DNA of 64,000 nt, taken from Rhodobacter capsulatus (GTDB lineage Bacteria > Pseudomonadota > Alphaproteobacteria > Rhodobacterales > Rhodobacteraceae). The notes below the pieces were generated by a model. That model was not told where the DNA came from and made no database searches. It worked only from the letters and a program-made list of their open reading frames with translations. This document shows positions 4,612 through 48,319 of the stretch, in pieces. A program made the translations under genes and the position numbers. Position 1 is the stretch's first letter, and each line of letters begins with the position of its first letter. Location of the stretch: NCBI RefSeq assembly GCF_005144475.1, contig NZ_SWJZ01000009.1, positions 1 through 64,000 on the forward strand, in the 5' to 3' direction.

Positions 4612-4658
4612 AACCTACTTAACCCGTTCCGTCGGGCGGCCGGGCCGGACCTGCGCTG

Positions 4659-8764: not shown

Positions 8765-8891
8765 TCTTTCTTGTCTGACCAGTTCGTCGACCGAAAACGC
8801 CCAGACGGGATGACCATCATCTGGATCGGCCCAAGTCCTGCCGTGGCAAACTCCACACATCGTGACGCTCGAAGATGATGCACGGGGCGTA

Positions 8892-9734: not shown

Positions 9735-9830
9735 GGTCGGTGTCTCCTGTGAGAGACGACCCCATGCCGAGCGCAAACAACATTCTTGCCAGCAAAACAA
9801 CTTTGCCGGTTGCAGAGGTTTGGACTTTGC

Positions 9831-9863
9831 GCTAGAAGATCCTTGTTCACGGGTTCTTCTAGC
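9831..9863. repeat. 9-bp perfect inverted repeat
   Basis: GCTAGAAGA and TCTTCTAGC flank a 15-base spacer, about 100 bases upstream of the minus-strand HTH gene. It may be a regulator-binding site or a hairpin in its leader. No other evidence. Confidence 0.4.
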
Positions 9864-9942
9864 GCGGCGTCAGGCTTTACGGTCTGGCGTCGTTTCCCTT
9901 TTCGGGTTCGGTGCACAGTCTCCGGTGCAAGTTGTGTCGGAG

Positions 9943-9967
9943 GCGGGCCTGCCTGATGCAGGCCCGC
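9943..9967 (-). terminator. Strong hairpin after the secreted-protein gene
   Basis: GCGGGCCTGC and GCAGGCCCGC form a perfect 10-bp stem with a 5-base loop, beginning 7 bases after the stop at 9974 of the minus-strand gene. There is no clear T-run, so it is a terminator or a transcript-stabilising hairpin. Confidence 0.5.
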
Positions 9968-9973
9968 GCAAAT

Positions 9974-10639: not shown

Positions 10640-10939
10640 GACGCCGACTCCCGCTATAATAGTGCGGCGATACAAAACAACACTACCGATAGCAAGGAAA
10701 TTTCAGCGCATCGGCTGCGATGTCGTCCCGAGGCGGTGGTCGTAGATGCCCGCCCAAAGCCTGATTTCGCTTCGACGCACCGATTGAGCACTTACATCCA
10801 CGATCCACGCGTAAGCGGCCATTAAACCGGCCAAGTCATCGGGCACGTTTTCCGTATCGTGTCACGCAATACTATGATAAGAATTATTTTCGATGGAAGT
10901 TCGCACGGCTAGTGAAGCGGCCAAGAAGAAGGTCATTCG
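10640..10939. other. Intergenic region between divergent genes
   Basis: 300 bases without a credible gene. It contains a TATAAT at 10655-10660 and an A/T-rich stretch at 10865-10895 before the fic gene, likely holding promoters for both directions. No repeat or RNA was recognised. Confidence 0.4.
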
Positions 10940-12135: not shown

Positions 12136-12202
12136 GGTTCGCAGGAGCGCAACAGGCGTAGCGCGGCCCATCTTCGTGGTGGTCCGGTAGAAGGGAAGTC
12201 CA

Positions 12203-12478
12203 CTATTCCAAGGCGTCCACGAACCGCCCGTATTCCTCGCTCACCTCCCTGGCCTCAACAAAAGCCCGCGCGCGTTCATCATCGAGGCAGCGGAAGTAAT
12301 CCTGCACCTCGGTGATGTAGGCTTCGAAATCCCCCCGGATCAGATCCGCGTAGGCGCGCATGTCCTCTCGTGACGTAGGCAGGAACGGCCGCTCGGGCGG
12401 AGTGCAGGCATGGGCCGGCCCCACCGCCACACTAAACGTGATCAGCAGCACCAGAGGGATGTTGCACGCACAGGTCAT
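12203..12478 (-). CDS. Small secreted hypothetical protein
   Basis: 91 residues with a signal peptide (NIPLVLLITFSVAVGPAHAC) and a short helical mature part, DMRAYADLIRGDFEAYITEV then DYFRCLDDERARAFVEAREV. The mature domain has a Cys near its start and one in the middle. It is divergent from the gene at 12674 across 195 bases that must carry both promoters. No family function is known to me; the type is common beside Rhodobacterales T4SS loci. Confidence 0.55.
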   Translation of the reverse strand: MTCACNIPLVLLITFSVAVGPAHACTPPERPFLPTSREDMRAYADLIRGDFEAYITEVQDYFRCLDDERARAFVEAREVSEEYGRFVDALE

Positions 12479-12673
12479 GTGCAGGGCAAAACTCCTTTGC
12501 CGCCTTTAAGATCACGATTTTGTCAGCTATCATCGTTATCGGAGCAAGGCGATCTTTGTCAAGTCGTTTTAATTGTCTTGCTATCGTTCATGTTGTATTG
12601 TATCGCCCACGGTGTTGCGACCCCGTGGGCCCGAGACTGCACCTCAGGCAGAAGAAGGACCCAAGGGAAGGCC

Positions 12674-13033
12674 ATGATAGAAGAAGCCCCGAATGTGGTT
12701 ACAGAAGATGGACTGCGCGGCCTCCTTGCCGAAGGCTACCTCATCGAGGTGGTCTGCAAGGAAGGGGCCGAGAAGCGCCACAACAGTTGGTACGGCGCCT
12801 GGGTCATCCGGGCCGTTGCCCCGGACGGGCGCGACGACAAGATGCTCGTCACCAGCCGTAGCGTCCTCAAGCTGCGCGATTTCAAGACCATCGTCGGCCT
12901 TGTCAGCTTCCTTGCCGACATGGGCTGCACGACCGCCAGCATCCCGCTCGTCGAGGGTGCCCGCGAGCATCACGCAGCCCCCGGACGGACATCCGAGCCA
13001 AGGACCGGCCCGGTTTTGGTCAAGGACAACTGA
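12674..13033 (+). CDS. Conserved hypothetical protein upstream of the T4SS operon
   Basis: 119 residues. The ATG at 12674 has AAGGGAAGG just upstream. The product (DGLRGLLAEGYLIEVVCKEG, then WVIRAVAPDGRDDKMLVTSR and LRDFKTIVGLVSFLADMGCT) looks like a compact soluble protein. It precedes the lytic transglycosylase and is probably the first gene of the virB operon. The function is unknown. Confidence 0.6.
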   Translation: MIEEAPNVVTEDGLRGLLAEGYLIEVVCKEGAEKRHNSWYGAWVIRAVAPDGRDDKMLVTSRSVLKLRDFKTIVGLVSFLADMGCTTASIPLVEGAREHHAAPGRTSEPRTGPVLVKDN

Positions 13034-13079
13034 CTGCGCGTTTGCGCTCGTCTTTCTACTAGGTACCGCCGCCTCTTCA

Positions 13080-13757
13080 ATGCCTTTGGCCGCCGAAACT
13101 CTCGCGAGTGCCGGCGGCTTTATCTTCCAGGTCAGTCCCGACGGTCGACTGATCGACACCGCCGAGACTACGAGCAGCCTGCGCTCGTTCACCGGCGGCG
13201 ACGACGCCCAGAACGGGCCTCTTTCAGATCGTCTCTTTCTTTTTGCAGAACCGCAGTCCCGTGGGGATGATGATCCCCTGAACGATGTGACGGCTGCCGC
13301 AGCGGTTACCCCGCGTGCTGGCCGCGCCTCCCCCGAAATCCTCCACGCTATCGAAACCACGGCACTGCGCTACGGCAGCCATGACGCCCTGCGCCAGGCG
13401 GGTCTGTCGGTCACCGACTGGACGCTGTTCTATCGCGCCAATATCGAGGTCGAGAGCGCCTACAATCCCGGCGCCTTGAGCCCGGTCGGGGCCATCGGGC
13501 TTGGCCAGTTGATGCCCGACACCGCCCGCGATCTCGGCGTCGATCCCCATGACATCGCCCAGAACCTCGACGGCTCGGCGCGGTACCTTCTGATGATGCT
13601 CGAGCAGTTCGGCGATCCAGCGCTGGCGCTCGCGGCCTACAATGCCGGTCCCCATGCGGTCACCCGCCATGGCGGCATTCCCCCCTTTCGAGAAACCCAA
13701 GGCCATGTGGCCCGTGTGACAGCCGTGTTCCAGCGGCTGAGAGGAGACCTTTCGTGA
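13080..13757 (+). CDS. Lytic transglycosylase (SLT, VirB1-like)
   Basis: 225 residues from the ATG at 13080. The SLT domain is complete: EVESAYNPGALSPVGAIGLG with the catalytic Glu, QLMPDTARDLGVDP, ALAAYNAGPHAV. It would open the peptidoglycan for the conjugation apparatus. The start is uncertain: in-frame codons upstream, LVFLLGTAASSMPLAAETLA, read like a signal peptide, yet no ATG, GTG or TTG stands before it after the preceding stop at 13033. Either the 13080 start makes a protein with little signal, or the original start was lost. The stop overlaps virB2 by 4 bases. Confidence 0.75.
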   Translation: MPLAAETLASAGGFIFQVSPDGRLIDTAETTSSLRSFTGGDDAQNGPLSDRLFLFAEPQSRGDDDPLNDVTAAAAVTPRAGRASPEILHAIETTALRYGSHDALRQAGLSVTDWTLFYRANIEVESAYNPGALSPVGAIGLGQLMPDTARDLGVDPHDIAQNLDGSARYLLMMLEQFGDPALALAAYNAGPHAVTRHGGIPPFRETQGHVARVTAVFQRLRGDLS

Positions 13758-14068
13758 CGTCCAAGAATCTTCAAAGCGTGCTCCGCGCGCGGGCCATTGT
13801 CGCGCTCGGCGCAACCGCCCTCATCGTGCTGGCAGGCCCTGCGCTGGCCCAAAGCATCGATCTGTCGCCCGTGCAAACCCTTCTGCAAGGCATCGTCGAT
13901 GCGATCACCGGCCCCTTGGGCATCGTGATCGGCACGCTCGCGCTGATCGGCGTGTTCCTCTCCTGGCTCTTCGGCATCCTCGATTTCCGCCAAGCGCTCT
14001 GGGTCGTGGTCGCGATCGCGGGCATCGCTGCAGCGCCCACCATCGTCGCCGCCATCTGGACGACCTGA
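13754..14068 (+). CDS. virB2: T4SS pilin VirB2 (TrbC family)
   Basis: 104 residues, GTG start overlapping the SLT stop. A long signal peptide ending ALA-Q is followed by two hydrophobic helices (PLGIVIGTLALIGVFLSWLF and ALWVVVAIAGIAAAPTIVAA), the pilin layout. It forms the conjugative pilus. It is the first of a tightly packed series virB2-virB3-virB4. Confidence 0.85.
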   Translation: MTSKNLQSVLRARAIVALGATALIVLAGPALAQSIDLSPVQTLLQGIVDAITGPLGIVIGTLALIGVFLSWLFGILDFRQALWVVVAIAGIAAAPTIVAAIWTT

Positions 14069-14077
14069 GCCAAACCG

Positions 14078-14356
14078 ATGTCCGACCAGTCCCGCGTGTT
14101 CATCGGCCTTCTCAGGCCACCCAAGCTGATGGGCTTGCCGATCATGTACGCCATGGTTTGGCTCTTCGGCTCGACGCTCCTGTTCCTCTGGGTCCAGAGC
14201 TGGGTGGTGGCCGTCTTCGCGGGGCTGGCCTGGCCGGCGCTTTGGAAAGCCGCGGACTGGGATCCGAACTTTCTCGACGTCCTGGTCATCACCTTGCAGG
14301 AAACCCCGCCTACAACGAACCGCAAACTCCATGGGGGCGACAGCTATGCCCCGTGA
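14078..14356 (+). CDS. virB3: T4SS inner-membrane protein VirB3
   Basis: 92 residues, usual length. It opens with VFIGLLRPPKLMGLPIMYAM, the VirB3 signature, and has two adjacent membrane helices. VirB3 works with VirB4 in pilus assembly. The gene overlaps the preferred virB4 start by 11 bases. Confidence 0.88.
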   Translation: MSDQSRVFIGLLRPPKLMGLPIMYAMVWLFGSTLLFLWVQSWVVAVFAGLAWPALWKAADWDPNFLDVLVITLQETPPTTNRKLHGGDSYAP

Positions 14357-16742
14357 TGGAGTTGCCGATGATGTGGCCGACGCGCTCGATCCGCTGACCG
14401 CGCTGCCCGCATGGGTCATGGGCGAGAAACGGCTCTCCTCCATGCTGCCTTACGTCAGCCTTGTGACCGACCGGACGATCCGGACGCGCGGCAACGAGCT
14501 GATGCAATGCATCCGGCTCGAAGGGGTGAACAGCACCACGAGCGAGGACGCCCATCTCGACCGAATCGGCGGGCTCTTGGCGGGCATCGTTGCGCAGGTC
14601 GGGACGGGGTTTTCCTTCTACCTGCACAAGGTCTCGAAAGCGGTCGATGTGACCCTGCCGCCCATCCCGGGCGCAGGGTTCGCCGCCGCCGTTGACCAAC
14701 GCTGGCAGGCCCATCTGGGTTGGTCGGGCTTGCGCGACAAGACACTGACCCTGACGGTGCTGAAGCGCCCGGAGACCGGCAGCCGTCTGCCGTTCGGCCT
14801 GAGCGCGGGACGCGCCCGGCATGCAGCCGACACGACCCGGCGCTTGCGAAAGCTCGACGAGGTCGTGGGATTTCTCCTGTCATCCTTCGATGAGTTGAAA
14901 CCCCGCCTCCTTGCCGCCAGCACTGGCGAGCTTCTGGGCTTCCTCGGCTCGCTCAACGTAGGCGAGGAGCATCCGCTCTACCCGCGATCGCGCCTCGGCG
15001 TGATCGCCGAGGATGTTGCCAATACCCGCGTCACCTTCCGCGGCACGACCATCGCGCTCTCTGACGGTGCCGTCGGCGACAAGCTCGGCACGATCTTCGC
15101 AGTGAAGAACTACCCCGCCAAGACCGACAGCCTGATGCTCGACGAGCTGAACCTGCCCGTCGACATGGTGGTCACACACTCCTTTGTGCCGATCAATGCC
15201 AACATTATGGCGGGTCGCATCAAGCGGCAGTTGCGCCTGATGCAGGCCGCCAATGACGGGGCCGTCAGCCTCGCGCAGGAACTCGAACTCGCACAGGACG
15301 ATCTGGAATCGAAACGCCTGATCTTCGGTGAACACCATATGACGGTGGCCGTCTATGCGCGCACCAGAGGCCAGCTCGACGATATCGCGGCCGAAATCCG
15401 CAACATCTCCGCCACCTCCGGCATCAACCTGATCTCAGAAGCCTTCGGGGCGCGGGCGCATTTTATGGCGCAGCATCCTGGCAACACCGGGGCGCGGAGC
15501 CGCAAGGCCGCGATCACGAACCACAACTTCGCGGATCTCGCCACCTTCCATCGCACGCCGCTCGGCAAGATTGGCCGGGAAGTGCCGTGGGGCGTGCCGA
15601 TCACGCTTTTCCCGACGCCAGAGCGCAGCGGGTTCCGGTTCAACTTCCACGAAGAGGGGGCGCCGGACCGTGAGCCCACAGGCGGGCACACGCTGATCCT
15701 CGGCCGCCCCGGGTCGGGCAAATCCGTGCTCGCGGCTTTCCTCATGACCATGGCCCGGCGCGCAGGTGCCCGGCTCTTCGTCTTCGACTACCGCGCCGGC
15801 ATGGAAATGGCCGTCCGCGCGCTTGGCGGCAGCTATTCGACCGTGCGCGCCGGACGGCCCACGGGGCTCAACCCCTTGCAGACCGACATTGATGCCCGAG
15901 GTCAGGCCTGGCTTGCTGACTGGCTCGCAAGCCTCCTCGAGCGCCGCGACCGGCCTTTGACCCCGGTGCAGACCAACCGCCTGCAGGAGGTCGTGCGCCA
16001 GAACGCAAGCGCCGGGAATGCGGGGCTCAGGAACTGGTCGGACTTCGCCTCGCTCCTCGTCTCGACCGATGACGACGGCGATCTCTTCGAGCGGATGCAG
16101 GAATGGACCGCCGAGGGCCGCTACGGCTGGATTTTCGGGGCGAACGCAAACGACACGTTCCAAATCGGGGGCAGCACCGACGCTGATGTCGCGGGATTCG
16201 ATCTAACCGGCATCCTCGACTCCGAGAGCGAACGGGAACGCATGGCGGTCCTGTCCTACCTCTTCCGCCGGGTCGAGCGGGTGATCGAGGATCGCAAGCC
16301 CACGATCATCGTGATCGACGAGGCCTGGAAGGCCCTCGACAACGCGTATTTCGCGGAGCGGCTCTCGAACTGGCTGGTTACCGCGCGAAAGCAGAACGCG
16401 GTCGTCGTGATGATGACCCAGTATGCCAGCCAGCTCGAGCGCACCCGGACCGGCAAGACCATCGTGGAAGCCGTGCCGACGCAGGTGCTCCTGCCCAACA
16501 TCCGCGCCTCGGCCGCCGACTACGCGATGCTCGGCCTCAGCGAGAAAGAACTCGACGTGCTTCTGGGCGTCGGCTCCGCCTCTCGCCTCGCGCTCGTGCG
16601 CGATGACCGTGGCGCGGTGGTGATCGACGCCGATCTCAGCGCCCTCGGTCCCCTCGTGACCATCCTTGGCGGCATGGAGAAGGGCGAGGCTCTTGTTGGC
16701 TCCGATTACCGCGATCGCCCTGATTTCTGGAGAGTGACATGA
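14346..16742 (+). CDS. virB4: T4SS ATPase VirB4
   Basis: 798 residues from ATG 14346 (an in-frame ATG at 14331 adds five). The CagE/TrbE N-terminal domain is followed by an AAA-type ATPase with Walker A LGRPGSGKSVLAAF near residues 452-460 and Walker B TIIVIDEAWKAL near 653. It powers pilus biogenesis and substrate transfer at the inner membrane. The stop overlaps the next gene by 4 bases. No defect is visible. Confidence 0.95.
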   Translation: MPRDGVADDVADALDPLTALPAWVMGEKRLSSMLPYVSLVTDRTIRTRGNELMQCIRLEGVNSTTSEDAHLDRIGGLLAGIVAQVGTGFSFYLHKVSKAVDVTLPPIPGAGFAAAVDQRWQAHLGWSGLRDKTLTLTVLKRPETGSRLPFGLSAGRARHAADTTRRLRKLDEVVGFLLSSFDELKPRLLAASTGELLGFLGSLNVGEEHPLYPRSRLGVIAEDVANTRVTFRGTTIALSDGAVGDKLGTIFAVKNYPAKTDSLMLDELNLPVDMVVTHSFVPINANIMAGRIKRQLRLMQAANDGAVSLAQELELAQDDLESKRLIFGEHHMTVAVYARTRGQLDDIAAEIRNISATSGINLISEAFGARAHFMAQHPGNTGARSRKAAITNHNFADLATFHRTPLGKIGREVPWGVPITLFPTPERSGFRFNFHEEGAPDREPTGGHTLILGRPGSGKSVLAAFLMTMARRAGARLFVFDYRAGMEMAVRALGGSYSTVRAGRPTGLNPLQTDIDARGQAWLADWLASLLERRDRPLTPVQTNRLQEVVRQNASAGNAGLRNWSDFASLLVSTDDDGDLFERMQEWTAEGRYGWIFGANANDTFQIGGSTDADVAGFDLTGILDSESERERMAVLSYLFRRVERVIEDRKPTIIVIDEAWKALDNAYFAERLSNWLVTARKQNAVVVMMTQYASQLERTRTGKTIVEAVPTQVLLPNIRASAADYAMLGLSEKELDVLLGVGSASRLALVRDDRGAVVIDADLSALGPLVTILGGMEKGEALVGSDYRDRPDFWRVT

Positions 16743-38240: not shown

Positions 38241-39371
38241 ATGCGCTGGAACTGGAATCAACCCGACTGGCCGAATTTCGTCTATGACAGCGCTGCCATC
38301 GAACCTCTCGAGCGGCGGTTCCTGCTGTCATCCGGCGAGATTCTCGGCGCCGTCCGCCATGTGACCGGCGATGAACGCGACCGGCTGCGCATCGAACTTC
38401 TGAGTGAAGAGGCGATGCGGACAAGCGCCATCGAAGGCGAGGTGCTAGACAGGGGCAGTGTGCAATCCTCCCTCCGGCGGCAATTCGGTCTGATCACTGA
38501 CGGTGCGCCATCGAAGCCCAAGGAACAGGGCGTCGCAGAGATGATGGTCGACGTCTACTCGACCTACGGCGCGCCTCTGACCCACGAGACCCTCAGCCAC
38601 TGGCACGGGATGCTCCTGGCACATGACCGAAGCCTCGAGACCATCGGTGCCTACCGGCGACATGCCGACGCGATGCAGATCGTCTCCGGCAGGATCGACC
38701 GACCGACGGTGCATTTCGAAGCACCGCCTTCGGCGCATGTCCAAGGTGAGATGGACGTGTTCGTCGACTGGTTCAACCGAACGGTACCAGACGGTCCAAC
38801 GCCCCTGCCGGCTCTGACCCGAGCGGCGCTTGGGCACCTCTGGTTCGAAAGCATCCACCCCTTCGAAGATGGCAATGGTCGCCTCGGCCGCGCCCTGGCG
38901 GAAAAATCCCTTGCCCAGAACATCGGCCAGCCGAGCCTGATCGCGCTAGCCTATACGATCGAACGGGACCGGAAGGCCTATTACGACCAGCTCGAGATCC
39001 ACCAGAAAACGCTGGACGTAACCGGCTGGCTGATCTGGTTCGCCGAGATCGTTCTGAAGGCGCAGCAGGTAACGCTGACACGGGTCGCGTTCTTCATCGC
39101 CAAGGCGAAGTTCTACGACCAGTTCCGTGATCGACTGAACGAGCGACAAGCCAAGGTGATTGAGCGCATGTTCCGCGAGGGGCCCGACGGGTTCAAAGGC
39201 GGCCTCAGCGCCGAGAACTACATCGCAATAACCGGCACGTCACGCGCCACCACAACGCGGGACCTGCAGGACCTCGTGGAGATGGGCGCGCTTAGCCGTA
39301 CCGGGGACCGGCGGCATACGCGGTATTGGCTAGGAGTCGCGGAAACAACGATATCGCAGGGTTCGTCGTAA
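38241..39371 (+). CDS. Fic family protein with C-terminal winged helix
   Basis: 376 residues, intact. The N-terminal DUF4172/Fic_N region contains the inhibitory motif TSAIEGE. The core is HPFEDGNGRLGRAL with the catalytic His, and the C-terminus is a winged helix (YIAITGTSRATTTRDLQDLV). Such proteins AMPylate targets and often control their own expression. It opens the defence block ahead of the type I R-M operon. Two inverted repeats precede it. A second, broken Fic gene lies at 10940. Confidence 0.9.
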   Translation: MRWNWNQPDWPNFVYDSAAIEPLERRFLLSSGEILGAVRHVTGDERDRLRIELLSEEAMRTSAIEGEVLDRGSVQSSLRRQFGLITDGAPSKPKEQGVAEMMVDVYSTYGAPLTHETLSHWHGMLLAHDRSLETIGAYRRHADAMQIVSGRIDRPTVHFEAPPSAHVQGEMDVFVDWFNRTVPDGPTPLPALTRAALGHLWFESIHPFEDGNGRLGRALAEKSLAQNIGQPSLIALAYTIERDRKAYYDQLEIHQKTLDVTGWLIWFAEIVLKAQQVTLTRVAFFIAKAKFYDQFRDRLNERQAKVIERMFREGPDGFKGGLSAENYIAITGTSRATTTRDLQDLVEMGALSRTGDRRHTRYWLGVAETTISQGSS

Positions 39372-39523: not shown

Positions 39524-39703
39524 ATGGGTGAGGATGCCGCGAAGCTTTCGAACCTGAATCTGAAGATCACCGAGGACGAGCGGTGGGCCTTCAAAGAGCT
39601 CTGCGTCCGGCACCGGATGAGCCAAGTCGACGGTTTCCGGCTGGCGGCCCGGCTTCTGGAAGACCACCTCGAGACGCACAAGAAGAAGAGTGAAGGCGAA
39701 TAG
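39524..39703 (+). CDS. Small ribbon-helix-helix-like protein before hsdM
   Basis: 59 residues from ATG 39524, with GAGGAG 8 bases upstream. The product has a strand (LSNLNLKITEDERWAFKELC) followed by two helices, as in RHH repressors and antitoxins. Its stop is directly followed by the hsdM ATG, so it is the first gene of the R-M operon and may control it. The in-frame ATG at 39488 is less likely because it lacks a ribosome-binding site. Confidence 0.65.
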   Translation: MGEDAAKLSNLNLKITEDERWAFKELCVRHRMSQVDGFRLAARLLEDHLETHKKKSEGE

Positions 39704-41722
39704 ATGAATACCCATACGACGAACACCTCCCTAGCGGATTTCATCTGGAAGAACGCGGACGACCTCTGGGGGAACTTCAAGCACGTCGATTTCGGAAAGG
39801 TCATCCTGCCCTTCACCCTGCTGCGCCGGCTGGAATGCGTGCTCGAACCGACCCGGGACCAGGTGCGCGAAACCGTCAAGACCATGAAGGACAGCGGGAT
39901 CGACCTGGGCGTGATCCTCCGGACCCAGACCGGTTACCCGTTCTACAACACCTCGAACTACGACCTCCGCAGCCTGGGCGCGACCCGGACCCGCCAGAAC
40001 CTCGAGGATTACATCGCCTCCTTCTCCGACAACGCCCGGGTCATCTTCGAACAGTTCGACTTCGCGAACACGCTGGCCCGGATGGACAAGGCCGGGGTCC
40101 TCTACAAGATCTGTCAGAACTTCGCCGCAATCGACCTGCATCCGGACGCGGTTCCGGAACGGGTCATGTCCAACGTCTACGAACACCTGATCCGGCGGTT
40201 CGGGGCCGAGGTGAACGAGGCCGCCGAGGACTTCATGACCCCACGCGACGTGGTCCATCTGGCCATCGAGCTGCTGCTCGACCCGGATGACCAGATGTTC
40301 ATCGACAACCCGGGGCTCATCCGGACGCTGTATGACCCGACCTGCGGCACCGGCGGTTTTCTGTCCGACGGCATGGAACATGTGAACGCCCTGCGCGACC
40401 GCTACTCCATCGCCCCGGTCATCGTGCCCTACGGCCAGGAACTGGAGCCGGAGACCCACGCCGTCTGCCTGGCCTCGATGCTGCTCAAGACCGTCGAGTC
40501 CGATCCGGGCCGGGACCTGTCGAAGAACATCAAACTGGGCAGCACCCTGTCCGACGACAAGCTCACGAACGAGAAGTTCCACTACTGCGTCTCGAATCCG
40601 CCCTTCGGCAAGAAGTGGGAGATGGATCAGGCCGCAGTGGTCCGGGAACATCAGGAAAAGGGGTTCGAGGGCCGGTTCGGCCCCAAGCTGCCCCGGGTCA
40701 GCGACGGGTCGATGCTGTTCCTCCTCCACCTTCTCAGCAAGCTGGAGGCGCCGGAGCGTGGCGGCGGGCGGGCGGCGATCGTCCTCTCCGGCTCGCCCCT
40801 GTTCAACGGAAACGCGGGTCAGGGCGAATCCGAAATTCGGCGCTATCTGGTGGAGGAGGACGTGGTCGAGGCGATCATCGCCCTTCCGACCGAGATCTTC
40901 TTCCGGACCGGGATCGGCACCTACATCTGGCTTCTGTCGAACAAGAAACCGGCCCACCGGAAGGGGCACGTCCAGCTGATCGACGCGACCGCGCTGTATG
41001 AGCCGATGCGCAAGAGCGAGGGGAACAAGCGTCGCCGGGTCGGGGACGACCAGATCCGCCAGATCGTCCAGATGTATTCCGACTTCGCCGAGACGAAGGA
41101 AAGCCGGATCTTCGACGCCCGCGATTTCGGCTATCGCCGGGTCAAGGTCCTGCGCCCGCTGCGCAAGAAGGTCGTGATGTCGCCCGAGGGGCTGGCCGCG
41201 CTGGCGGATGAAACCGCCTGGGGCAAGCTGTCTACGGAGGAACAGGCGGCCTGGACCGCGCTGTTTCAGGCGGACATGGGCGAGGCGCACGGTTGGCACC
41301 GGTTCGAGGCCTGGGTCAAGAACGCGGTCAAGCGCGACCCGGGGCTGGGCCGCGTGAACGCCGCCCTGATCAAGGCGTTCCAGAAGGCGTTCGGGGTGCG
41401 CGACCCGGACCTTGACCCGATTCTGGACAAGTCCGGCGCGGTGATCCCCGATGACGACCTGACGGATTTCGAGAACATCCCCCTTGGCACCGACATCCGG
41501 GACTATATGGCGCAGGAGGTGCTGCCCCATGCGCCCGACGCCTATGTGGATGACGGGTTCCGCGACGAATACGACGGTCAGGTGGGCATCGTGGGGTATG
41601 AGATCAACTTCAACCGCTACTTCTATGAATACCAGCCGCCCCGCGATCTGGAGGAGATCGACGCCGAGCTGAAGGCGGTCGAGGCGGAAATCGCGGCGGT
41701 GCTGGCGGAGGTGACGGAATGA
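39704..41722 (+). CDS. hsdM: Type I restriction-modification methyltransferase HsdM
   Basis: 672 residues. HsdM_N helices come first (SLADFIWKNADDLWGNFKHV), then the SAM motif DPTCGTGGFLSDGM and the catalytic N6-adenine motif SNPPFGKKW. The C-terminal part is longer than in short HsdM proteins and ends with a coiled coil. It methylates adenine in the host recognition site. It overlaps hsdS by 4 bases. Confidence 0.95.
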   Translation: MNTHTTNTSLADFIWKNADDLWGNFKHVDFGKVILPFTLLRRLECVLEPTRDQVRETVKTMKDSGIDLGVILRTQTGYPFYNTSNYDLRSLGATRTRQNLEDYIASFSDNARVIFEQFDFANTLARMDKAGVLYKICQNFAAIDLHPDAVPERVMSNVYEHLIRRFGAEVNEAAEDFMTPRDVVHLAIELLLDPDDQMFIDNPGLIRTLYDPTCGTGGFLSDGMEHVNALRDRYSIAPVIVPYGQELEPETHAVCLASMLLKTVESDPGRDLSKNIKLGSTLSDDKLTNEKFHYCVSNPPFGKKWEMDQAAVVREHQEKGFEGRFGPKLPRVSDGSMLFLLHLLSKLEAPERGGGRAAIVLSGSPLFNGNAGQGESEIRRYLVEEDVVEAIIALPTEIFFRTGIGTYIWLLSNKKPAHRKGHVQLIDATALYEPMRKSEGNKRRRVGDDQIRQIVQMYSDFAETKESRIFDARDFGYRRVKVLRPLRKKVVMSPEGLAALADETAWGKLSTEEQAAWTALFQADMGEAHGWHRFEAWVKNAVKRDPGLGRVNAALIKAFQKAFGVRDPDLDPILDKSGAVIPDDDLTDFENIPLGTDIRDYMAQEVLPHAPDAYVDDGFRDEYDGQVGIVGYEINFNRYFYEYQPPRDLEEIDAELKAVEAEIAAVLAEVTE

Positions 41723-43038
41723 GCCTTCCGGCTTACGATGTTTTTAAGGTTGCTCCAGTGGAGTGGCTTGGTCCCCTTCCTGCCCATTGGGGCGCGGCTG
41801 CGATCAAACGGCTTGTGTTAACCCCGATAACTGACGGTCCGCACGAAACCCCACAGTTTCACGAGTCTGGCATCCCGTTTGTATCCGCAGAAGCGGTGGG
41901 CACCGGAAAGATAAATTTTGAAAAAATAAGAGGATATATCTCAAGCGAGGATCATTTACGATACTCTCGAAAGTACTTTCCCAAGAAGAACGACATCTTC
42001 CTGGTTAAGTCTGGAGCTACCACAGGTGTAAGTGCCATTGTAGAAGTGGATACTGAATTCAACATCTGGTCCCCACTGGCTGTGGTTCGGTGCGATAGCG
42101 AAAAGATAATCCCCCATTTTATGCTTTACGCCCTTCGGAGCAGAAATTTCCTTGACGGGATCGCCCTGAATTGGAGTTACGGCACTCAACAGAATATCGG
42201 TATGGGCGTTCTAGAAAGGCTACACGTACCCCTTCCGCCCAAATCAGAACAAGAAAAGATTGTAGCCTTCCTGAATGGGTCAGTTTCAAAGGTCGACAGC
42301 CTGATCGAGAAGAAGACCCGGTTCATCGCGCTGCTGAAGGAAAAGCGGGCGGCCGTGATCACCCATGCGGTGACCAAGGGCATCGACCCGGACGCGCCGA
42401 TAAAGGACTCGGGCGTGGACTGGCTGGGCCGCGTGCCCGCCCATTGGGAGGTGCTGCGCATCGCGGCCCTGTTCCGCGAGGTCTCACGCCCGGCGGACCC
42501 GGCCCTGCCGGTCCTGTCCGTGTCCATCCACGACGGTGTGACGGACGGGGAACTTGCCGACGAGGACCGGGACCGGAAGGTCGCCCTCAGCGAGGACCGG
42601 ACCAAATATCAGGGCGTCGCGCCCGGCGATCTGGTCTACAACATGATGCGCGCATGGCAGGGCGCGTTCGGGGCGGTCACGGTCAAGGGGTTGGTCAGCC
42701 CGGCCTATGTGGTCGCGGCCCCGGTCACCACGTTCCGGACCAAGTTCATCGAACACCTTCTTCATACAAAGAGCGCCGCCGAAGAAATCCGCCGGTTCTC
42801 GCGCGGCATCGCGGATTTCCGGATGCGGCTTTACTGGGATCATTTCCGGGCGCTGAAGGTCTGCCTACCGCCGCTGGAGGAACAAGACCGCATCCTGTCC
42901 GAGATCGACACAGAATCCGCCCGCATCGATGGCCTGATCGCCCTGACCGAGCGCAGCATCGACCTCCTGCGTGAGAAGCGCGCGGCGCTGATCACCGCCG
43001 CCGTGACCGGCAAGATCGACGTGAGGGCTGCGGCATGA
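41719..43038 (+). CDS. hsdS: Type I restriction-modification specificity subunit HsdS
   Basis: 439 residues with two target-recognition domains, each opened by a WLG.LPAHW motif (EWLGPLPAHWG; DWLGRVPAHWEV), separated by conserved helices (VDSLIEKKTRFIALLKEKRA; second ARIDGLIALTERSIDLLREK). This sets the bipartite DNA target. TRD1 (about 41740-42260) is visibly less GC-rich than the rest, in keeping with exchange of specificity modules. An Abi gene follows after 166 bases. Confidence 0.93.
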   Translation: MSLPAYDVFKVAPVEWLGPLPAHWGAAAIKRLVLTPITDGPHETPQFHESGIPFVSAEAVGTGKINFEKIRGYISSEDHLRYSRKYFPKKNDIFLVKSGATTGVSAIVEVDTEFNIWSPLAVVRCDSEKIIPHFMLYALRSRNFLDGIALNWSYGTQQNIGMGVLERLHVPLPPKSEQEKIVAFLNGSVSKVDSLIEKKTRFIALLKEKRAAVITHAVTKGIDPDAPIKDSGVDWLGRVPAHWEVLRIAALFREVSRPADPALPVLSVSIHDGVTDGELADEDRDRKVALSEDRTKYQGVAPGDLVYNMMRAWQGAFGAVTVKGLVSPAYVVAAPVTTFRTKFIEHLLHTKSAAEEIRRFSRGIADFRMRLYWDHFRALKVCLPPLEEQDRILSEIDTESARIDGLIALTERSIDLLREKRAALITAAVTGKIDVRAAA

Positions 43039-43204
43039 CTTTTGGCGCGGACCGGTCGGTTTCTTATTGCTTTGGTAGGATTCCTGCCCTATCTACTGTG
43101 TCAACAAGACCCGCCACGCCTCGGACGGAACCTCGGTTTCGCACTGCGCACCCCGGCGGGTTACTTGTTTTCAGGGTATCGCTTTCGCGGCGCAGAGGTG
43201 CCGC

Positions 43205-44107
43205 ATGAAGTTCGAAAAACCTGCCGTTTCCGTCCCGGATCAGGTCAAGCTCCTCAAACGTCGTGGCATGGCTGTCAGGGATGAAGCCCTTGCACAGCAC
43301 TACCTGAACTTCATCTCCTACTACCGGCTGCGGGCCTACTGGCTGCCCTTCGAGGTGCCCGCCGCGAACAACGGCGATCACGCTTTCCGCGACGGGACAA
43401 CCTTCGAGGACGTGCTGACGCTCTACATCTTCGACCGCGAACTTCGGCTCCTGGTTCTGGACGCCATCGAGCGGGTCGAGGTGGCCCTGCGCGCACAATG
43501 GGCGCATCACATGGCGATGACCTATGGCCCCCATGGTTACCTCGAACAGGGCCACTATGCCCATATCGGGCGTCATGCAGATGCGGTTGCGGAGCTCAAG
43601 AAAGAATTTGCGCGCTCGCGCGACACGTTCGCCACCCATTATCGCGACAAATACACGTCGCCGACGCTGCCACCGGTCTGGATGGCGGCAGAAGTCATGT
43701 CCTTCGGCTTGCTGTCGAAATTCTACAGCGATCTGAAGCTGCGCAGCGATAGAAACGCCATCGCCGCCCCCTTCGCCCTGGATGAGAAGGTCGTCACATC
43801 TTTCGCCCACCATATCAGCCACGCGCGCAACATTTGCGCCCACCACGGTAGGCTGTGGAACAAGCGCTTCACGGTGAAAATGACGGTTCCGAAATATCCC
43901 GCAAAACTGCCGGTCGCCATGCGGGATGCCGATCCGCGCTATCTGCACAACACCCTGGTGATGCTCGATTACCTGCTGGCCCTGATCGCGCCGGGCAATG
44001 AGTGGAAAAAACGCCTTGTGGCACTGATCGACAGCTGCCCGTTGGCCGATCCTGCCAGCATGGGGTTTCCGGCGGATTGGCGCGCCAGAGCAGCATGGAG
44101 GGTATGA
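43205..44107 (+). CDS. Abi_2 (AbiD/AbiF) family abortive-infection protein
   Basis: 300 residues. N-terminal [20 protein letters not shown] and [10 protein letters not shown] are typical of Abi_2. The HEPN-type motif [12 protein letters not shown] near residue 216 supplies R-x4-6-H for RNA cleavage. It is thought to kill or arrest infected cells. AGAGGT precedes the ATG. It sits inside the hsd operon between hsdS and the GIY-YIG gene, making a combined restriction and abortive unit likely. Confidence 0.85.
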
Positions 44108-44109
44108 GA

Positions 44110-44166
44110 ATGCCGATTGCTGTCCAAGCGACGCTGGCGAGGCTTCTGAACGAGGTGGCCGCATGA
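44110..44166 (+). other. 18-codon ORF overlapping the GIY-YIG start
   Basis: MPIAVQATLARLLNEVAA, two bases after the abi stop and overlapping the next ATG by 4 bases. It may couple translation across the junction, or be the last bit of a lost gene. No other evidence for a functional peptide. Confidence 0.3.
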
Positions 44167-45089
44167 CCACGGGTGAGACCTTCGGCAGGACCATCCAGCT
44201 TTTCCTGGTCGACGGGAAACCCACGGGCCTGCGCAAGGCCACGATCCACGGCTGGACCGGCCTGTTGTTCGTCAGCGGCGCCTCGGCCTTCGGCGATCTG
44301 ACCGCCCGGGCCGAGGTGGACCGGACCGGAGTCTATATCCTGTCCGGCCCGGACCCGGACAAGCCCGGCGTGACCCGGGTCTATATCGGGTCGGGGAACT
44401 CCGTCTCTGAGCGGATCGAACAGAGCGCGAAGAAGCGCGACTTCTGGGAAACCGCGATCACCGTCACCACCAGCGATGACGACCTGTCTAAGGGGCATGC
44501 CGAATACCTTGAGGCGCGGCTGATCCGCCTGACCGCGCAGGCGGGCCGGGTGACGCTGGATAACGGCACCCAACCCGATACCGACCGCCGCCGCCTGCCC
44601 GAGGCGGATGTCGCGAACATGGAACAGTTCCTGTCGAACCTGAAGATCATCCTGCCGGTTATCGGGCTGGATATGCTCAAGCCTCAGCCCCGGGCCGTGA
44701 CGCAGGTCGCGAAACCTGCCGAGGAGCGGACGGTCGAAGAGGTTCACTTCGAGATCCGCCACAAGAGCGGCGTTCAGGCGACCGCCGTGGAAGAGGACGG
44801 GGAATTTGTAGTGCTGGAAGGATCCGAGGCCCTGATCGGGACCGGGTACGTCCAGCAGAGCTATGGCGGCCTGAAGGAAAAGATGATCGCGGATGGCGCG
44901 CTGGTTCCCCATGCCCCGGACCGGATGCGCTTCGCCAAGCCCTGGCCGTTCGGCAGCCCCTCGGCCGCGGCGGCGGTGGTACTGGACCGGAACAGTAACG
45001 GGCGGCTGGAATGGAAGGTCCGGGGATCGAAGCTGAATTATCACGAGTGGCAGCAGGCGCAAGCCGGCGGGTCGGAGGTGACGGAATGA
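44163..45089 (+). CDS. GIY-YIG nuclease-like protein with DUF4357
   Basis: 308 residues. The central GIY-YIG module is TGVYILSGPDPDKPGVTRVY then IGSGNSVSERI with a Glu in AEYLEARLI. The C-terminal part (VEEDGEFVVLEGSEALIG, YGGLKEKMIADGAL) matches DUF4357. Such proteins often accompany type I R-M loci; a nuclease or nucleic-acid-binding role is assumed. It overlaps hsdR by 4 bases. Confidence 0.78.
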   Translation: MTTGETFGRTIQLFLVDGKPTGLRKATIHGWTGLLFVSGASAFGDLTARAEVDRTGVYILSGPDPDKPGVTRVYIGSGNSVSERIEQSAKKRDFWETAITVTTSDDDLSKGHAEYLEARLIRLTAQAGRVTLDNGTQPDTDRRRLPEADVANMEQFLSNLKIILPVIGLDMLKPQPRAVTQVAKPAEERTVEEVHFEIRHKSGVQATAVEEDGEFVVLEGSEALIGTGYVQQSYGGLKEKMIADGALVPHAPDRMRFAKPWPFGSPSAAAAVVLDRNSNGRLEWKVRGSKLNYHEWQQAQAGGSEVTE

Positions 45090-48000
45090 GCGACCTGCAT
45101 TACGAGAAGAACCTCGAAGGCTACATCGTCTGGAAGCTCACCGCCGCAGGCTGGCTGGTCGGCACGACCGACGCCTATGACGCGGACCGAGCCATGTACC
45201 CGGAGGATCTGGAGGCATGGCTACGCGCTACCCAACCCCAGAAATGGGACCGGCTTCACGCGATGAACGGGGACAAGACCCTTACAGTGGTCATGGACCG
45301 GCTGGAGGCGGCGCTGGAAAAACAGGGGATGGTGCAGACACTGCGCCGGGGGTTTTCCATCGCGGGCGCGGGGCATCTGGACCTGTCCGAGGCAGCCCCA
45401 GAGGACCGGCGGAACGACCAGGTCCTGCATCGTTACGCGTCGAACCGGCTGCGGGTCGTGCCCCAGCTGAAGTACCACCCCGAGCGCGAACTCGCCATCG
45501 ACCTCGGCCTGTTCCTGAACGGCCTGCCGCTGGCCACGGTCGAGTTGAAGACGGACTTCACCCAGTCCGTCGAACACGCAAAGGCCCAGTATCGGCGCGA
45601 CCGGCCTCCGGTCGACCCGGTCACCAAGCGCAAGCACCCGCTCCTGACCTTCAAGCGGGGCGCAATCGTCCATTTCGCGATGTCGGACAGCGAGATCTGG
45701 ATGACCACGAAGCTTGCGGCCGACGATACCTTTTTCCTCCCCTTCAACAAGGGGGATAACGGCCGGGCCGGCAACGCGGCCCGGGCCGATGGAGAATACC
45801 CGGTCGCCTATTTCTGGGAGGAGATCTGCCAGCCGGACGCGTTCCTGCGGATCTTCCACAGCTTCGTCTATGTCGAGAAGAAGAACGTGGTGGACCTGAA
45901 AGGGAACTGGTCGGTCAAGGAGACGCTGATCTTCCCCCGGTTCCACCAGTTCGACGCGGTCAACAAGATGATCGCCGACGCGAAGGCGAAGGGGCCCGGG
46001 CACCCCTACCTGTGCGAGCACAGCGCCGGTTCCGGCAAGACCTCGACCATCGCCTGGACGGCGCATGACCTGGTGAAGCTGCGCCGGGATGACGGGACGC
46101 CGATCTTCGACACGGTGATCATCGTGACGGACCGGAACGTCCTGGACGGCCAGTTGCAGGACGCGGTCCAGCAGATCGACCATCAGAAGGGGCTGATCGC
46201 GGCCATCGACCGGGAAACCTCGTCGAAGTCGAAGAGCGACCAGTTGAGCGAGGCGATGCTGAAGGGCACTCCGATCATCGTGGTGACCATCCAGACCTTC
46301 CCCTTCGCGATGGAGGCGATCCTGACCGAGCGGTCGCTGCGGGACCGGAACTTCGCGGTGATCATCGACGAGGCGCACAATTCTCAGACCGGGAACACGG
46401 CGTCAAAACTTCAGGCGACGCTGGCCCTGTCCGCCCGGAAGGACGCGGCGGATATGACGGTCGAAGACATCCTCCTGGAGATCCAGCGGGCCCGGAAACG
46501 TCCGGCGAACGTGTCCCATTTCGCCTTCACGGCGACCCCGAAACATTCGACCATGATGCTCTTCGGGCGCCCGACCGACCCGTCCCGCCCGGGGGGGAAC
46601 GACAACCTCCCGGTATCGTTCCACAAATACGAGATGCGGCAGGCGATCGAGGAGGGGTTCATCCTCGATGTCCTGCGGGGCTATGTCCCCTACAAGACCG
46701 CGTTCAACCTCGGCCAGGAGATCGTCGAGGAGAAGCGAGTCGACGGGAAAGCGGCGAAGCGGGCGCTAGCGAAATGGATGACGCTTCACCCGACGAACGT
46801 CACCCAGAAAGTCCGGTTCATCATCGAACATTTCTCAAAGAACGTGGCCCACCTCTTGGACGGGAAGGCGAAAGCGATGGTCGTCACCAGCTCCCGGGCC
46901 TCCGCGGTCCGGTACAAGCGTGCATTCGACGCCTTAATCGCGGCCAATCCAGCTTATGGGAACATCCGGGCGCTGGTGGCCTTTTCGGGGAAACTGACCG
47001 GGCGCGAGGTGATGCACCCGAACGATGACCTTCTGAAGGGGGACGCGTTCATCGTCGAGGAGGACGCGGAGTTCACCGAGGCGAACATGAACCCGGATGC
47101 GGCCGGAAAGGATCTACGCCACGTCTTCGACCGGCCGGAATACCGGGTCATGCTGGTGGCGAACAAGTTCCAGACCGGGTTCGACCAGCCGAAGCTGGTC
47201 GCTATGTACGTGGACAAGAAGATCGCGAACGCGGTCGAGATCGTTCAGACCTTCTCCCGCCTGAACCGAACCTTCCCCGGGAAGGATCAGACCTTCATCA
47301 TCGACTTCATCAACGACCCCGACGTGGTTCGGGCCGCCTTCGCCCAGTATGATCGGGGCGCCCGGATCGAGGAGGTTCAGGACCTCAACGTCATCTATGA
47401 CCTGAAGGGCTTCCTGGACGATCAGGGGCTATATGACGACACGCACATGTTCGACTTCCAGCGAGCCCGATTCCGGACCGCTTCCGCCGCCGCAAGCGGC
47501 GCTGATGACGAGGCGGCGCACAAGGCGATGTTCGCGGCCACCCAGGAGCCGACCGACGCCTATAACCGGCGCCTCGCAGAGTTGCGGGACCGGGCCGGCG
47601 CAGCCGAGGACGCCTGGCAGCGCGCGAAGAGGGCCGGGAACGAGGACGGGATGAAGCGCGCGGATCACGAGCGCGAGCAGGTCGAGACGGCGATCATCTC
47701 CCTCACGGATTTCAAGGCGGGCCTGGCCCGGTTCGGTAGGCTCTACGCCTATATCGCGCAGCTGGTCGACCTTGGAGACCCGGACCTCGAAACCTTCGCC
47801 GCCTTCGCCAAGCTGCTGGCGAACCGGCTGGACGGGATCCCGCCCAATCAGATCGACCTGCACGGGATTGCGTTGACCGGATACCAGATCGCCGAGCGCG
47901 AACCGGCCGGGGGTGAAACGGAACCCGAGGAGCCCATTCTCCAGCCCGACAAGGGGGGCGGAGGGGGCGGACGCCCCGGGGCGTTGCCGGTCTACATCCA

Positions 48001-48319
48001 GGAACTGATCGAGCGGCTGAACAGCCTTTTCGGCGAGGCGACCCCGATCGAGGACCAGGTCGCCTTCGTGAATCAGGTGGCGGCGATCACCCGCGAAAAC
48101 CGGGTGGTCATGGCGCAGATCGAGAAGAACACGAAGGATCAGGCGATGAAGGGAAACCTGCCCGGCGCGGTGCAGGCGGCGGTGGTCCGGGCCATGTCTT
48201 CGCACAGCGCGCTCGCCACGCTTCTGCTGAGCAAGGACCGACAGGCCCTGCCGATCCTCGAAGGGGTCGTCTACGAGATCTTGAAACGAGGTGCAGCTCT
48301 CGACCTAACTTCAAAGTGA
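45086..48319 (+). CDS. hsdR: Type I restriction endonuclease HsdR
   Basis: 1077 residues from ATG 45086. The N-terminal nuclease domain has LPLATVELKTDFTQSVEHAK (the ExK of the PD-ExK fold). The motor has Walker A CEHSAGSGKTSTIAW, DEAH box VIIDEAHNSQTG, FAFTATPKHSTMM and later TGFDQPKLVAMYVDK. It cuts unmodified DNA after translocation. It is the last gene of hsdM-S-abi-GIY-YIG-hsdR. Confidence 0.95.
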   Translation: MSDLHYEKNLEGYIVWKLTAAGWLVGTTDAYDADRAMYPEDLEAWLRATQPQKWDRLHAMNGDKTLTVVMDRLEAALEKQGMVQTLRRGFSIAGAGHLDLSEAAPEDRRNDQVLHRYASNRLRVVPQLKYHPERELAIDLGLFLNGLPLATVELKTDFTQSVEHAKAQYRRDRPPVDPVTKRKHPLLTFKRGAIVHFAMSDSEIWMTTKLAADDTFFLPFNKGDNGRAGNAARADGEYPVAYFWEEICQPDAFLRIFHSFVYVEKKNVVDLKGNWSVKETLIFPRFHQFDAVNKMIADAKAKGPGHPYLCEHSAGSGKTSTIAWTAHDLVKLRRDDGTPIFDTVIIVTDRNVLDGQLQDAVQQIDHQKGLIAAIDRETSSKSKSDQLSEAMLKGTPIIVVTIQTFPFAMEAILTERSLRDRNFAVIIDEAHNSQTGNTASKLQATLALSARKDAADMTVEDILLEIQRARKRPANVSHFAFTATPKHSTMMLFGRPTDPSRPGGNDNLPVSFHKYEMRQAIEEGFILDVLRGYVPYKTAFNLGQEIVEEKRVDGKAAKRALAKWMTLHPTNVTQKVRFIIEHFSKNVAHLLDGKAKAMVVTSSRASAVRYKRAFDALIAANPAYGNIRALVAFSGKLTGREVMHPNDDLLKGDAFIVEEDAEFTEANMNPDAAGKDLRHVFDRPEYRVMLVANKFQTGFDQPKLVAMYVDKKIANAVEIVQTFSRLNRTFPGKDQTFIIDFINDPDVVRAAFAQYDRGARIEEVQDLNVIYDLKGFLDDQGLYDDTHMFDFQRARFRTASAAASGADDEAAHKAMFAATQEPTDAYNRRLAELRDRAGAAEDAWQRAKRAGNEDGMKRADHEREQVETAIISLTDFKAGLARFGRLYAYIAQLVDLGDPDLETFAAFAKLLANRLDGIPPNQIDLHGIALTGYQIAEREPAGGETEPEEPILQPDKGGGGGGRPGALPVYIQELIERLNSLFGEATPIEDQVAFVNQVAAITRENRVVMAQIEKNTKDQAMKGNLPGAVQAAVVRAMSSHSALATLLLSKDRQALPILEGVVYEILKRGAALDLTSK

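What the first reader, a model, noticed from the sequence alone, without database searches (positions are those of the whole stretch)
39524..48319. Type I R-M operon with an RHH-like leader gene, an HEPN Abi protein and a GIY-YIG protein inside
Gene order is RHH-like, hsdM, hsdS, Abi_2, GIY-YIG/DUF4357, hsdR, with overlaps or short gaps. The Abi_2 protein has an RNase-type R-x4-6-H motif. The arrangement suggests a two-layer defence: DNA restriction, then cell arrest if restriction fails, perhaps sensed through the GIY-YIG protein.
Basis: partly seen in the sequence, partly recalled or inferred. Interest (0 to 1): 0.65.

Follow-up and report, generated by a model that had tools for sequence, protein, structure and literature searches.

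The report
RNA-controlled toxin inside restriction-modification operon
A plasmid gene cluster that cuts foreign DNA carries, wedged between its DNA-modifying and DNA-cutting genes, a probable growth-stopping RNA-cutting toxin with its own small RNA antidote, an arrangement that recurs in other bacteria and may serve as a backup when the first defence fails.

Summary
The gene order is real: RHH-like leader, hsdM, hsdS, Abi, GIY-YIG/DUF4357, hsdR (39524-48319), on a plasmid-type element. The Abi protein is a full-length homologue of AbiF (8vz6, E 5.5e-52), the RNase toxin that such RNAs neutralise. So an AbiF/abiF-RNA toxin-antitoxin cassette sits inside a type I R-M operon. The RNA differs at 0-1 of 66 positions in 13 relatives, although abiF synonymous divergence is 0.40-0.76. 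Ketogulonicigenium has the operon without the cassette. In a Pseudomonadota sample 16 of 40 AbiF genes lie beside type I genes on the same strand, 11 of 40 nested, 0 of 40 opposite (AbiEii control: 2, 0, 3 of 40); but 0 of 19 in a class sample. GIY-YIG looks like a separate accessory, not AbiF's sensor. 'Abi2/AbiF/AbiD embedded in R-M operons' is in print since 2013; PrrC and DarTG are known embedded toxins. Apparently new: the retained RNA unit and the counts. Nothing was tested at the bench.

The parts
39524..39703 (+). Leader gene, 59 aa, possible ribbon-helix-helix regulator
   Evidence: 88-92% identical in three near relatives and 63% (68%) in K. vulgare, just before hsdM in each; AlphaFold: helices 17-29 and 34-58 after an extended stretch, pLDDT 76.8; Foldseek rows include RHH proteins ParG, CopASO, TacA, CopG but all rows E >= 1.2; no Pfam match
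39704..41722 (+). hsdM, type I methyltransferase
   Evidence: Pfam N6_Mtase and HsdM_N, PADLOC MTase_I E 2.7e-256; NPPF motif
41719..43038 (+). hsdS, specificity subunit
   Evidence: Methylase_S, PADLOC Specificity_I E 1.8e-99; 46% and 78% identical to the Thioclava and Nitratireductor copies, whose M, Abi, GIY and R are 90-96%
43067..43095 (+). Promoter-like stretch for the small RNA (TTGCTT ... TATCTA), read by eye from the likeness to relatives; weak in this copy
   Evidence: aligned by eye; over 45 abiF RNAs a -35/-10 pair sits at a fixed place in 43, but the window is one of the two exceptions, and the consensus scanner found none here
43103..43171 (+). abiF-type small RNA, predicted antitoxin; Rfam match 43110-43161, outer stem 43103-43108 with 43164-43169, short U run 43168-43171 (terminator-like)
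   Evidence: RF03085 32.2 bits, E 0.012; fold z -2.8; 0-1 of 66 differences in 13 relatives; covariation. Ends are my estimate.
43205..44107 (+). abiF (Abi_2, HEPN RNase toxin), R208-x4-H213
   Evidence: Pfam E 3.9e-57, PADLOC AbiD E 3.3e-72; PDB 8vz6 E 5.5e-52 over residues 2-299; dN/dS 0.04-0.11
44110..44166 (+). 18-codon open frame between abiF and GIY-YIG, overlapping the GIY-YIG start; possible translational coupler
   Evidence: sequence reading; not tested
44163..45089 (+). GIY-YIG / DUF4357 protein, putative nuclease
   Evidence: DUF4357 E 7.6e-13, PADLOC PDC-S14 E 2.1e-111; Y58, Y74, G76, R84, E117 in 63 of 63 alignment rows; model aligns to UvrC GIY-YIG domains Z 6.2-6.5
45086..48319 (+). 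hsdR, type I restriction subunit
   Evidence: SWI2_SNF2, ResIII, T1R_D3-like, HSDR_N; GSGKT, DEAH and E-x-K motifs

Best explanation
A type I R-M operon carries a two-part toxin-antitoxin cassette, abiF RNA plus the AbiF HEPN RNase, between the modification genes (hsdM, hsdS) and hsdR. Shown by sequence: M, S and R with their motifs; an AbiF with its active-site residues; a conserved RNA hairpin unit 5' of abiF; and the same operon without the cassette in a relative. Inferred: the RNA is made from its own promoter, ends at its hairpin, binds AbiF and keeps it silent; read-through supplies AbiF, GIY-YIG and HsdR. The first layer is restriction. If a phage survives it (modified DNA, antirestriction protein) and shuts off or redirects host transcription, or if the plasmid is lost, the RNA is no longer renewed, AbiF cuts RNA and growth stops. 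That would abort infection and also penalise loss of the R-M locus. HsdS varies while the rest is constant, so the same backup would follow changing specificities. GIY-YIG is taken as a separate accessory nuclease, not the sensor.
For: AbiF is homologous over its length to the AbiF of structure 8vz6. An RNA of the Rfam abiF kind lies in the expected place. The RNA is identical in 11 and differs at 1 of 66 positions in 2 of 13 relatives while abiF dS is 0.40-0.76 and dN/dS 0.04-0.11. The stem covaries at 5 of 6 outer pairs over 16 RNAs (picking them required 5 of 6 pairs, so partly circular). The RNA model finds 48 matches at E<0.01 on 47 of 80 AbiF loci, 14 of those 47 having served to build it, against 2 of 95 loci without an AbiF profile match. 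Promoter-like pairs sit at a fixed place in 43 of 45 RNAs against 14.0 in shuffles. In the phylum sample AbiF lies beside type I genes on the same strand in 16 of 40 loci, nested in 11 of 40, on the opposite strand in 0 of 40; AbiEii control 2, 0 and 3 of 40 (Fisher p 3e-4 and 4e-4). At least 11 changes of nested state on the AbiF tree. C. difficile AbiF is toxic, its R and H are needed, and its RNA neutralises it (PMC12373285).
Against: No toxicity, RNA expression or phage test exists for this operon. The RNA scores below Rfam's threshold. The window itself is one of 2 of 45 RNAs whose best promoter-like pair is not at the common place, the scanner found no promoter, and the U run is short. 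Linkage is not universal: 0 of 19 strong AbiF hits of the class sample and 2 of 9 of the order sample lie beside type I genes, and 24 of 40 of the phylum sample do not, so AbiF works elsewhere without R-M. My RNA model finds nothing at 14 of 17 class AbiF genes examined, nor at 3 of the 16 R-M-linked ones. Co-location can reflect defence-island traffic alone.
Confidence: 0.58

Rival explanations
1. PrrC-like guard: the R-M proteins themselves hold AbiF silent, and phage antirestriction proteins release it; the RNA is a secondary regulator.
For: prrC, also a HEPN RNase, is embedded in the EcoprrI type I operon and its product is held by that enzyme; the 2013 survey extends this to other HEPN proteins of R-M operons (PMC3710099, PMC3874165, PMC12707154, passages). 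In 11 of 14 nested loci outside the window's clade the next hsd gene starts -93 to +38 nt from the abiF stop, which suggests they are made together; in the window's clade GIY-YIG lies between.
Against: AbiF lacks PrrC's ABC NTPase part. By my reading 13 of 16 R-M-linked AbiF of the phylum sample keep an RNA match. The five AbiF of Rhizobiaceae plasmids that are 57-60% identical have the same RNA type and no hsd profile match within the 6 kb fetched on each side.
Confidence: 0.16
2. Addiction only: the cassette stabilises the R-M locus or its plasmid by killing cells that lose it, with no role in phage defence.
For: The operon lies on plasmids typed conjugative and in one plasmid between IS6 transposase genes; toxin-antitoxin pairs can stabilise plasmids (recalled).
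Against: Lactococcal AbiF and AbiD1 act on phages (PMC3710099, passages); 24 of 40 AbiF in the phylum sample are outside R-M, so stabilising R-M is not their common task.
Confidence: 0.13
3. Chance traffic: defence genes pile up on such plasmids and the slot tolerates inserts, without functional coupling.
For: The S-R slot has been called a potential recombination hotspot (PMC12255303 section 25); Acetobacter has a further gene pair there; AbiF is absent from the related K. vulgare and Roseovarius S88 operons; class sample 0 of 19.
Against: 16 same-strand against 0 opposite-strand neighbours (p 3e-5) and none nested among 40 AbiEii loci; repeated nesting in two slots; cassette under purifying selection.
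Confidence: 0.13

Closest known systems
AbiF / abiF RNA (RCd22 of C. difficile; PbAbiF 8vz6)
   Same: Abi_2 HEPN protein with R-x4-H; RNA of the RF03085 kind directly upstream with promoter-like and hairpin-U parts; toxin neutralised by the RNA in the studied cases (PMC12373285, PMC12737573)
   Different: Here inside a type I R-M operon; one RNA motif instead of two in RCd22; RNA with a longer apical hairpin, below Rfam's threshold
Abi2/AbiF/AbiD 'Embedded in R-M operons' (HEPN survey 2013, PMC3710099)
   Same: Same family and same kind of context, same two-layer proposal
   Different: It proposed control by R-M subunits; in the passages seen no RNA antitoxin, counts or control families appear
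RRDM island (RptR, HsdMS, DarTG2, HsdR, M48; PMC12255303)
   Same: Toxin-antitoxin pair between hsdS and hsdR with a small leader regulator
   Different: DarTG2 instead of AbiF/RNA; RptR is a four-helix protein of 79 aa, the leader here looks RHH-like
EcoprrI-PrrC
   Same: HEPN RNase gene embedded in a type I operon (that it lies between hsdS and hsdR is recalled)
   Different: PrrC is an ABC-HEPN anticodon nuclease held by the R-M enzyme; no RNA antitoxin is described in the passages seen
PDC-S14 (PADLOC candidate) and PD-T4-3
   Same: PDC-S14 profile matches the GIY-YIG protein (E 2.1e-111); PD-T4-3 shares a GIY-YIG-like region
   Different: PDC-S14 is only a candidate; the PD-T4-3 resemblance is weak (Z 4.0)

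Membership tests
Type I R-M system | HsdM, HsdS and HsdR in one operon with catalytic motifs | tested here: met
   M and R fall below NCBIfam's hsdM/hsdR cut-offs (96.9 of 242.75; 152.8 of 284.55 bits), so a divergent subclass
AbiF toxin | Abi_2 HEPN domain with R-x4-H | tested here: met
abiF RNA (RF03085) | Match at or above the gathering score | tested here: not met
   32.2 against 37 bits; the apical part is 15 nt longer than the model's; core pairs and the letters CGCCUC and GCGCA are kept
abiF RNA, in the wider sense | Conserved stem with GCCUC and GC-x-CA directly 5' of abiF | tested here: met
Type III toxin-antitoxin (ToxIN kind) | Tandem repeats of the antitoxin RNA | tested here: not met
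   one match in the window; of 80 loci only L160 shows two matches at E<0.01
AbiF/abiF RNA toxin-antitoxin pair | Toxicity and its neutralisation by the RNA | not testable with these tools
   needs expression in a laboratory strain
PrrC | ABC NTPase fused to HEPN | tested here: not met
   only Abi_2 found in 300 aa
RRDM | RptR leader and DarTG2 | tested here: not met
   no DarT or DarG family among the hits of the operon's proteins; the leader was set against RptR only by described size and fold, not by sequence
GIY-YIG nuclease | Fold and the residues Y, Y, R, E (motif roles recalled) | tested here: met
   residues in 63 of 63 alignment rows; UvrC GIY-YIG Z 6.2-6.5 over 81-84 residues, plant Grx N-terminal domain Z 8.0; Foldseek itself no match at E <= 0.001; activity not tested
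RHH regulator (leader) | Strand then two helices, dimeric | tested here: inconclusive

The most novel reading that the evidence does not exclude
The abiF RNA unit is a switch for the whole defence operon. Its promoter and hairpin lie between the modification genes and hsdR, and elsewhere the next hsd gene is joined directly to abiF. Termination at the RNA would keep both toxin and restriction subunit low and let modification lead. A phage that redirects transcription through the hairpin, or stops RNA renewal, would raise AbiF and HsdR together. One RNA would then be antitoxin and timer of restriction at once.
Probability: 0.17. Interest if true: 0.75.

Novelty: new variant of a known kind. Interest (0 to 1): 0.5.

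Why it matters
AbiF is held to be the ancestor of Cas13 (PMC12373285, PMC12737573), and I saw no natural trigger for it in the passages read. If it is repeatedly installed with its RNA inside type I R-M operons, the R-M system and the RNA are a concrete, testable pair of candidates for how the toxin is held and released. The relatives also form a natural set (with cassette, without cassette, with truncated GIY-YIG) for testing whether embedded toxins back up restriction.

Tried and rejected
GIY-YIG as the sensor of AbiF: not supported, the two are mostly found apart. The 18-aa frame 44110-44166 as a relic of an hsdM C-terminus: rejected by eye, no likeness to 14 hsdM ends that abut GIY-YIG elsewhere. 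A sigma-70 promoter for the RNA in the window itself: not found by the scanner. Foldseek for GIY-YIG and leader gave no match at E <= 0.001. An Rfam scan of 385 class genomes for RF03085 gave 2 genomes and not the window's own, whose match is sub-threshold; that search uses stricter filters. PF08843 (AbiEii) served as control.

Limits of the counts. Of 63 phylum-sample rows of Abi_2, 20 weak ones (97 bits or less) were not looked at; of the 43 strong ones the window's own and two fetched with the class sample (L108, L124, both without type I neighbours) were left out, giving 40; with those two it is 16 of 42. Several of the 40 come from the same genera. Contigs end near some genes (25 of 40 AbiF and 26 of 40 AbiEii loci have 3.5 kb on both sides). 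The 11 nested include L151, whose upstream HsdR match is a weak fragment (49 bits). The AbiEii loci are 40 of the 41 best-scoring rows outside the window's genome (one row of G802 was passed over), not a random draw; some are from the window's class. For L148 and L156 the RNA match lies inside an over-long ORF call, so the script's 23 of 40 with RNA is 25 of 40 by my reading, and 12 of 16 R-M-linked is 13 of 16. The promoter test used the window and 44 of the 50 best matches; L070, L154, L172, L135, L175 and the second match of L160 were left out, and its shuffles keep single-base content only. The tree (87 rows) used 7 of the 13 near relatives and the quick method; a state 'no' can be false at contig ends. 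Identities of whole operons were computed for Thioclava, Nitratireductor, K. vulgare and Roseovarius S88 only. One search printed a Fisher value with a wrong control count (3 instead of 2); the right ones are.
Full report
What is there. The region 39524-48319 holds six genes on one strand in the stated order. hsdM and hsdS overlap by 4 nt, GIY-YIG and hsdR by 4 nt, and the leader stop abuts the hsdM start. The largest gap, 166 nt between hsdS and abi (43039-43204), is not empty: Rfam's abiF RNA (RF03085) matches at 43110-43161 with 32.2 bits (gathering score 37) and E 0.012 in a search of 11 kb against 4227 families, the only match up to E 1. The surroundings are those of a plasmid-type mobile element: relaxase, TraG-type coupling protein, VirB4-like ATPase, VirC1/ParA protein and an integrase lie in the window, and the operon's neighbours recur on plasmids of Thioclava and Actibacterium typed as conjugative.

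The toxin. The Abi protein matches Abi_2 (E 3.9e-57) and PADLOC AbiD (E 3.3e-72). Among the PDB sequences it matches one at E <= 0.001, chain 8vz6_A, over residues 2-299 with E 5.5e-52; the review PMC12737573 (passages) names 8VZ6 as the PbAbiF-RNA complex. R208, N209 and H213 stand in 98 of 98 alignment rows, the window counted twice. In C. difficile a conserved R and H (R202, H207) are needed for toxicity, and the RNA RCd22, which holds two abiF motifs, binds and neutralises the protein (PMC12373285; outline with abstract, passages and sections 6, 7 and 12 read).

The RNA. In 14 loci of the same operon clade (window, L004-L013, L066, L068, L070; L069 is the plasmid twin of L066) the gap before abiF is 166 nt. 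Over the 66-nt stretch 43104-43169, 11 of 13 relatives are identical to the window and 2 of 13 differ at one base, while abiF synonymous divergence to the same relatives is 0.40-0.76 and dN/dS 0.04-0.11. The hairpin folds with z -2.8 against shuffles; the whole 166-nt gap folds with z -1.5 only. The stem covaries over 16 RNAs of diverse loci, 5 of 6 outer pairs with changes on both sides, 0 of 500 shuffles as good; the RNAs had been picked with a pattern that asked for 5 of 6 pairs, so this is partly circular. The window's RNA differs from the standard abiF RNA by a longer apical hairpin, shared with AbiF of five Rhizobiaceae plasmids (57-60% identical AbiF) and three genomes of the order sample; 98% of its cells pair, with 2 of 5 pairs compensated. 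A covariance model from 16 RNAs finds 48 matches at E < 0.01 on 47 of 80 AbiF loci (14 of the 47 were in the model). In 95 loci without an AbiF profile match (1.5 Mb) it finds 2 at E < 0.01, one of them strong. In 45 RNAs the best -35/-10 pair ends 11-20 nt before the stem in 43, against 14.0 in shuffled sequence; mean score 13.34 against 10.90. The window is one of the two exceptions; the stretch I mark as its promoter rests on likeness to relatives. Most of the listed RNAs are followed directly by a T-rich run. Promoter, hairpin, U run, toxin gene is the layout described for RCd22-abiF (PMC12373285 section 7). Against this: in the class sample the model finds RNA at 3 of the 17 AbiF genes (5 of 19 with L108 and L109).

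Where it sits. Ketogulonicigenium vulgare carries the same operon (leader 68%, M 82%, S 49%, GIY 85%, R 76% identical) without the cassette: there the hsdS stop overlaps the GIY-YIG start as ATGA. In the window hsdS ends at the homologous stop and the stretch RNA, abiF, 18-codon frame (43039-44162) follows, ending again in ATGA. Insertion in one line or loss in the other would both fit. Roseovarius S88 has M-S-R with neither gene between, and a GIY-YIG gene upstream. Actibacterium has the cassette but a GIY-YIG frame of 82 codons. HsdS is 46% and 78% identical to the Thioclava and Nitratireductor copies where M, Abi, GIY and R are 90-96%, so specificity is exchanged around a constant frame.

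How general. Abi_2 was sought in three samples and flanks were fetched. In the phylum sample 16 of 40 strong AbiF genes have an hsd gene on the same strand within 3.5 kb, 11 of 40 have hsd genes on both sides, 0 of 40 have one on the other strand. In the order sample 2 of 9, in the class sample 0 of 19. A control of 40 AbiEii loci gave 2, 0 and 3 of 40; Fisher p 3e-4 (same strand) and 4e-4 (nested), orientation p 3e-5. By my reading 13 of the 16 linked AbiF have an RNA match. Two slots are used: between hsdS and hsdR (window clade, L116 Acetobacter, L146, L150, L156, L166 and others) and between hsdM and hsdS (L100, L101, L140, L145, L152). L100 has the window's RNA core letter for letter in the other slot, beside an hsdM that scores 546 bits where the window's scores 622. 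On an AbiF tree of 87 rows, nested state changes at least 11 times and R-M linkage at least 15 times. In 11 of 14 nested loci outside the window's clade the next hsd gene starts -93 to +38 nt from the abiF stop; in 9 of these 11 the preceding hsd gene ends 122-325 nt before the AbiF domain, and all 9 have an RNA match.

GIY-YIG. The fold is supported (UvrC GIY-YIG domains Z 6.2-6.5; model pLDDT 71.6) and Y58, Y74, G76, R84 and E117 stand in 63 of 63 alignment rows. The gene lies within 6 kb of type I genes on the same strand in 38 of 63 loci, in several positions, and with AbiF in 11 of 63. It looks like a mobile accessory of R-M loci, possibly a nuclease for modified phage DNA (a guess from a weak likeness to PD-T4-3, Z 4.0), and nothing ties it to sensing for AbiF.

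What is known. The 2013 HEPN survey lists 'Abi2/AbiF/AbiD' as 'Embedded in R-M operons' and proposes a PrrC-like backup for HEPN proteins of R-M operons (PMC3710099, passages). An island with DarTG2 between hsdS and hsdR and a leader repressor protects E. coli from phages (PMC12255303; outline, passages and sections 20, 25 and 26 read). PrrC in EcoprrI is the classic case (PMC3874165, PMC12707154, passages). Guilt-by-embedding candidates (PDC) come from a 2024 preprint cited in PMC12988326 (passages) and PMC12255303. Searches of the held library listed no paper that I could see to tie the abiF RNA to R-M operons; most listed papers were seen as listing only. The Payne 2024 preprint and the Zilberzwige-Tal Cas13 paper were not read and are known here only as cited.

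Verdict. The thing is an AbiF/abiF-RNA toxin-antitoxin cassette in a type I R-M operon, a new variant of the known kind 'toxin embedded in R-M'. Shown: anatomy, conservation, recurrence. Inferred: silencing by the RNA, trigger, backup role.

Noticed in passing
L055:1540-1589 (+), Sphingomonadaceae: A near-perfect abiF RNA (53.9 bits) with no AbiF profile match in that locus; the frames listed beside it do not look like AbiF: an orphan antitoxin RNA or a relic.
   Followed up: partly
L160:7601-7655 and 7844-7909: Two abiF RNA matches in a row before an AbiF gene that is followed directly by hsdR.
   Followed up: no
L116 (Acetobacter vaccinii plasmid) 4141-5786: A protein annotated ImmA/IrrE family and one annotated DUF4411 sit in the same hsdS-hsdR slot before AbiF, so two accessory modules share one R-M operon.
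   Followed up: partly
L009:6197-9244: The middle of hsdR reads on the opposite strand, an inversion or an assembly fault in this metagenome-assembled genome.
   Followed up: no
L070 (Nitratireductor plasmid) 4233-15795: The leader-to-hsdR unit lies between two IS6 family transposase genes, and no Fic gene is listed beside it, unlike in several relatives: perhaps a mobile unit.
   Followed up: no
window 38241-39371: A Fic-family gene (DUF4172 plus Fic) stands just before the operon in the window and in several near relatives; Fic genes also lie near AbiF in two Rhizobiaceae plasmids without hsd genes nearby.
   Followed up: no
window 44110-44166: An 18-codon frame of constant length but changing letters joins abiF to GIY-YIG in the near relatives compared.
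   Followed up: partly
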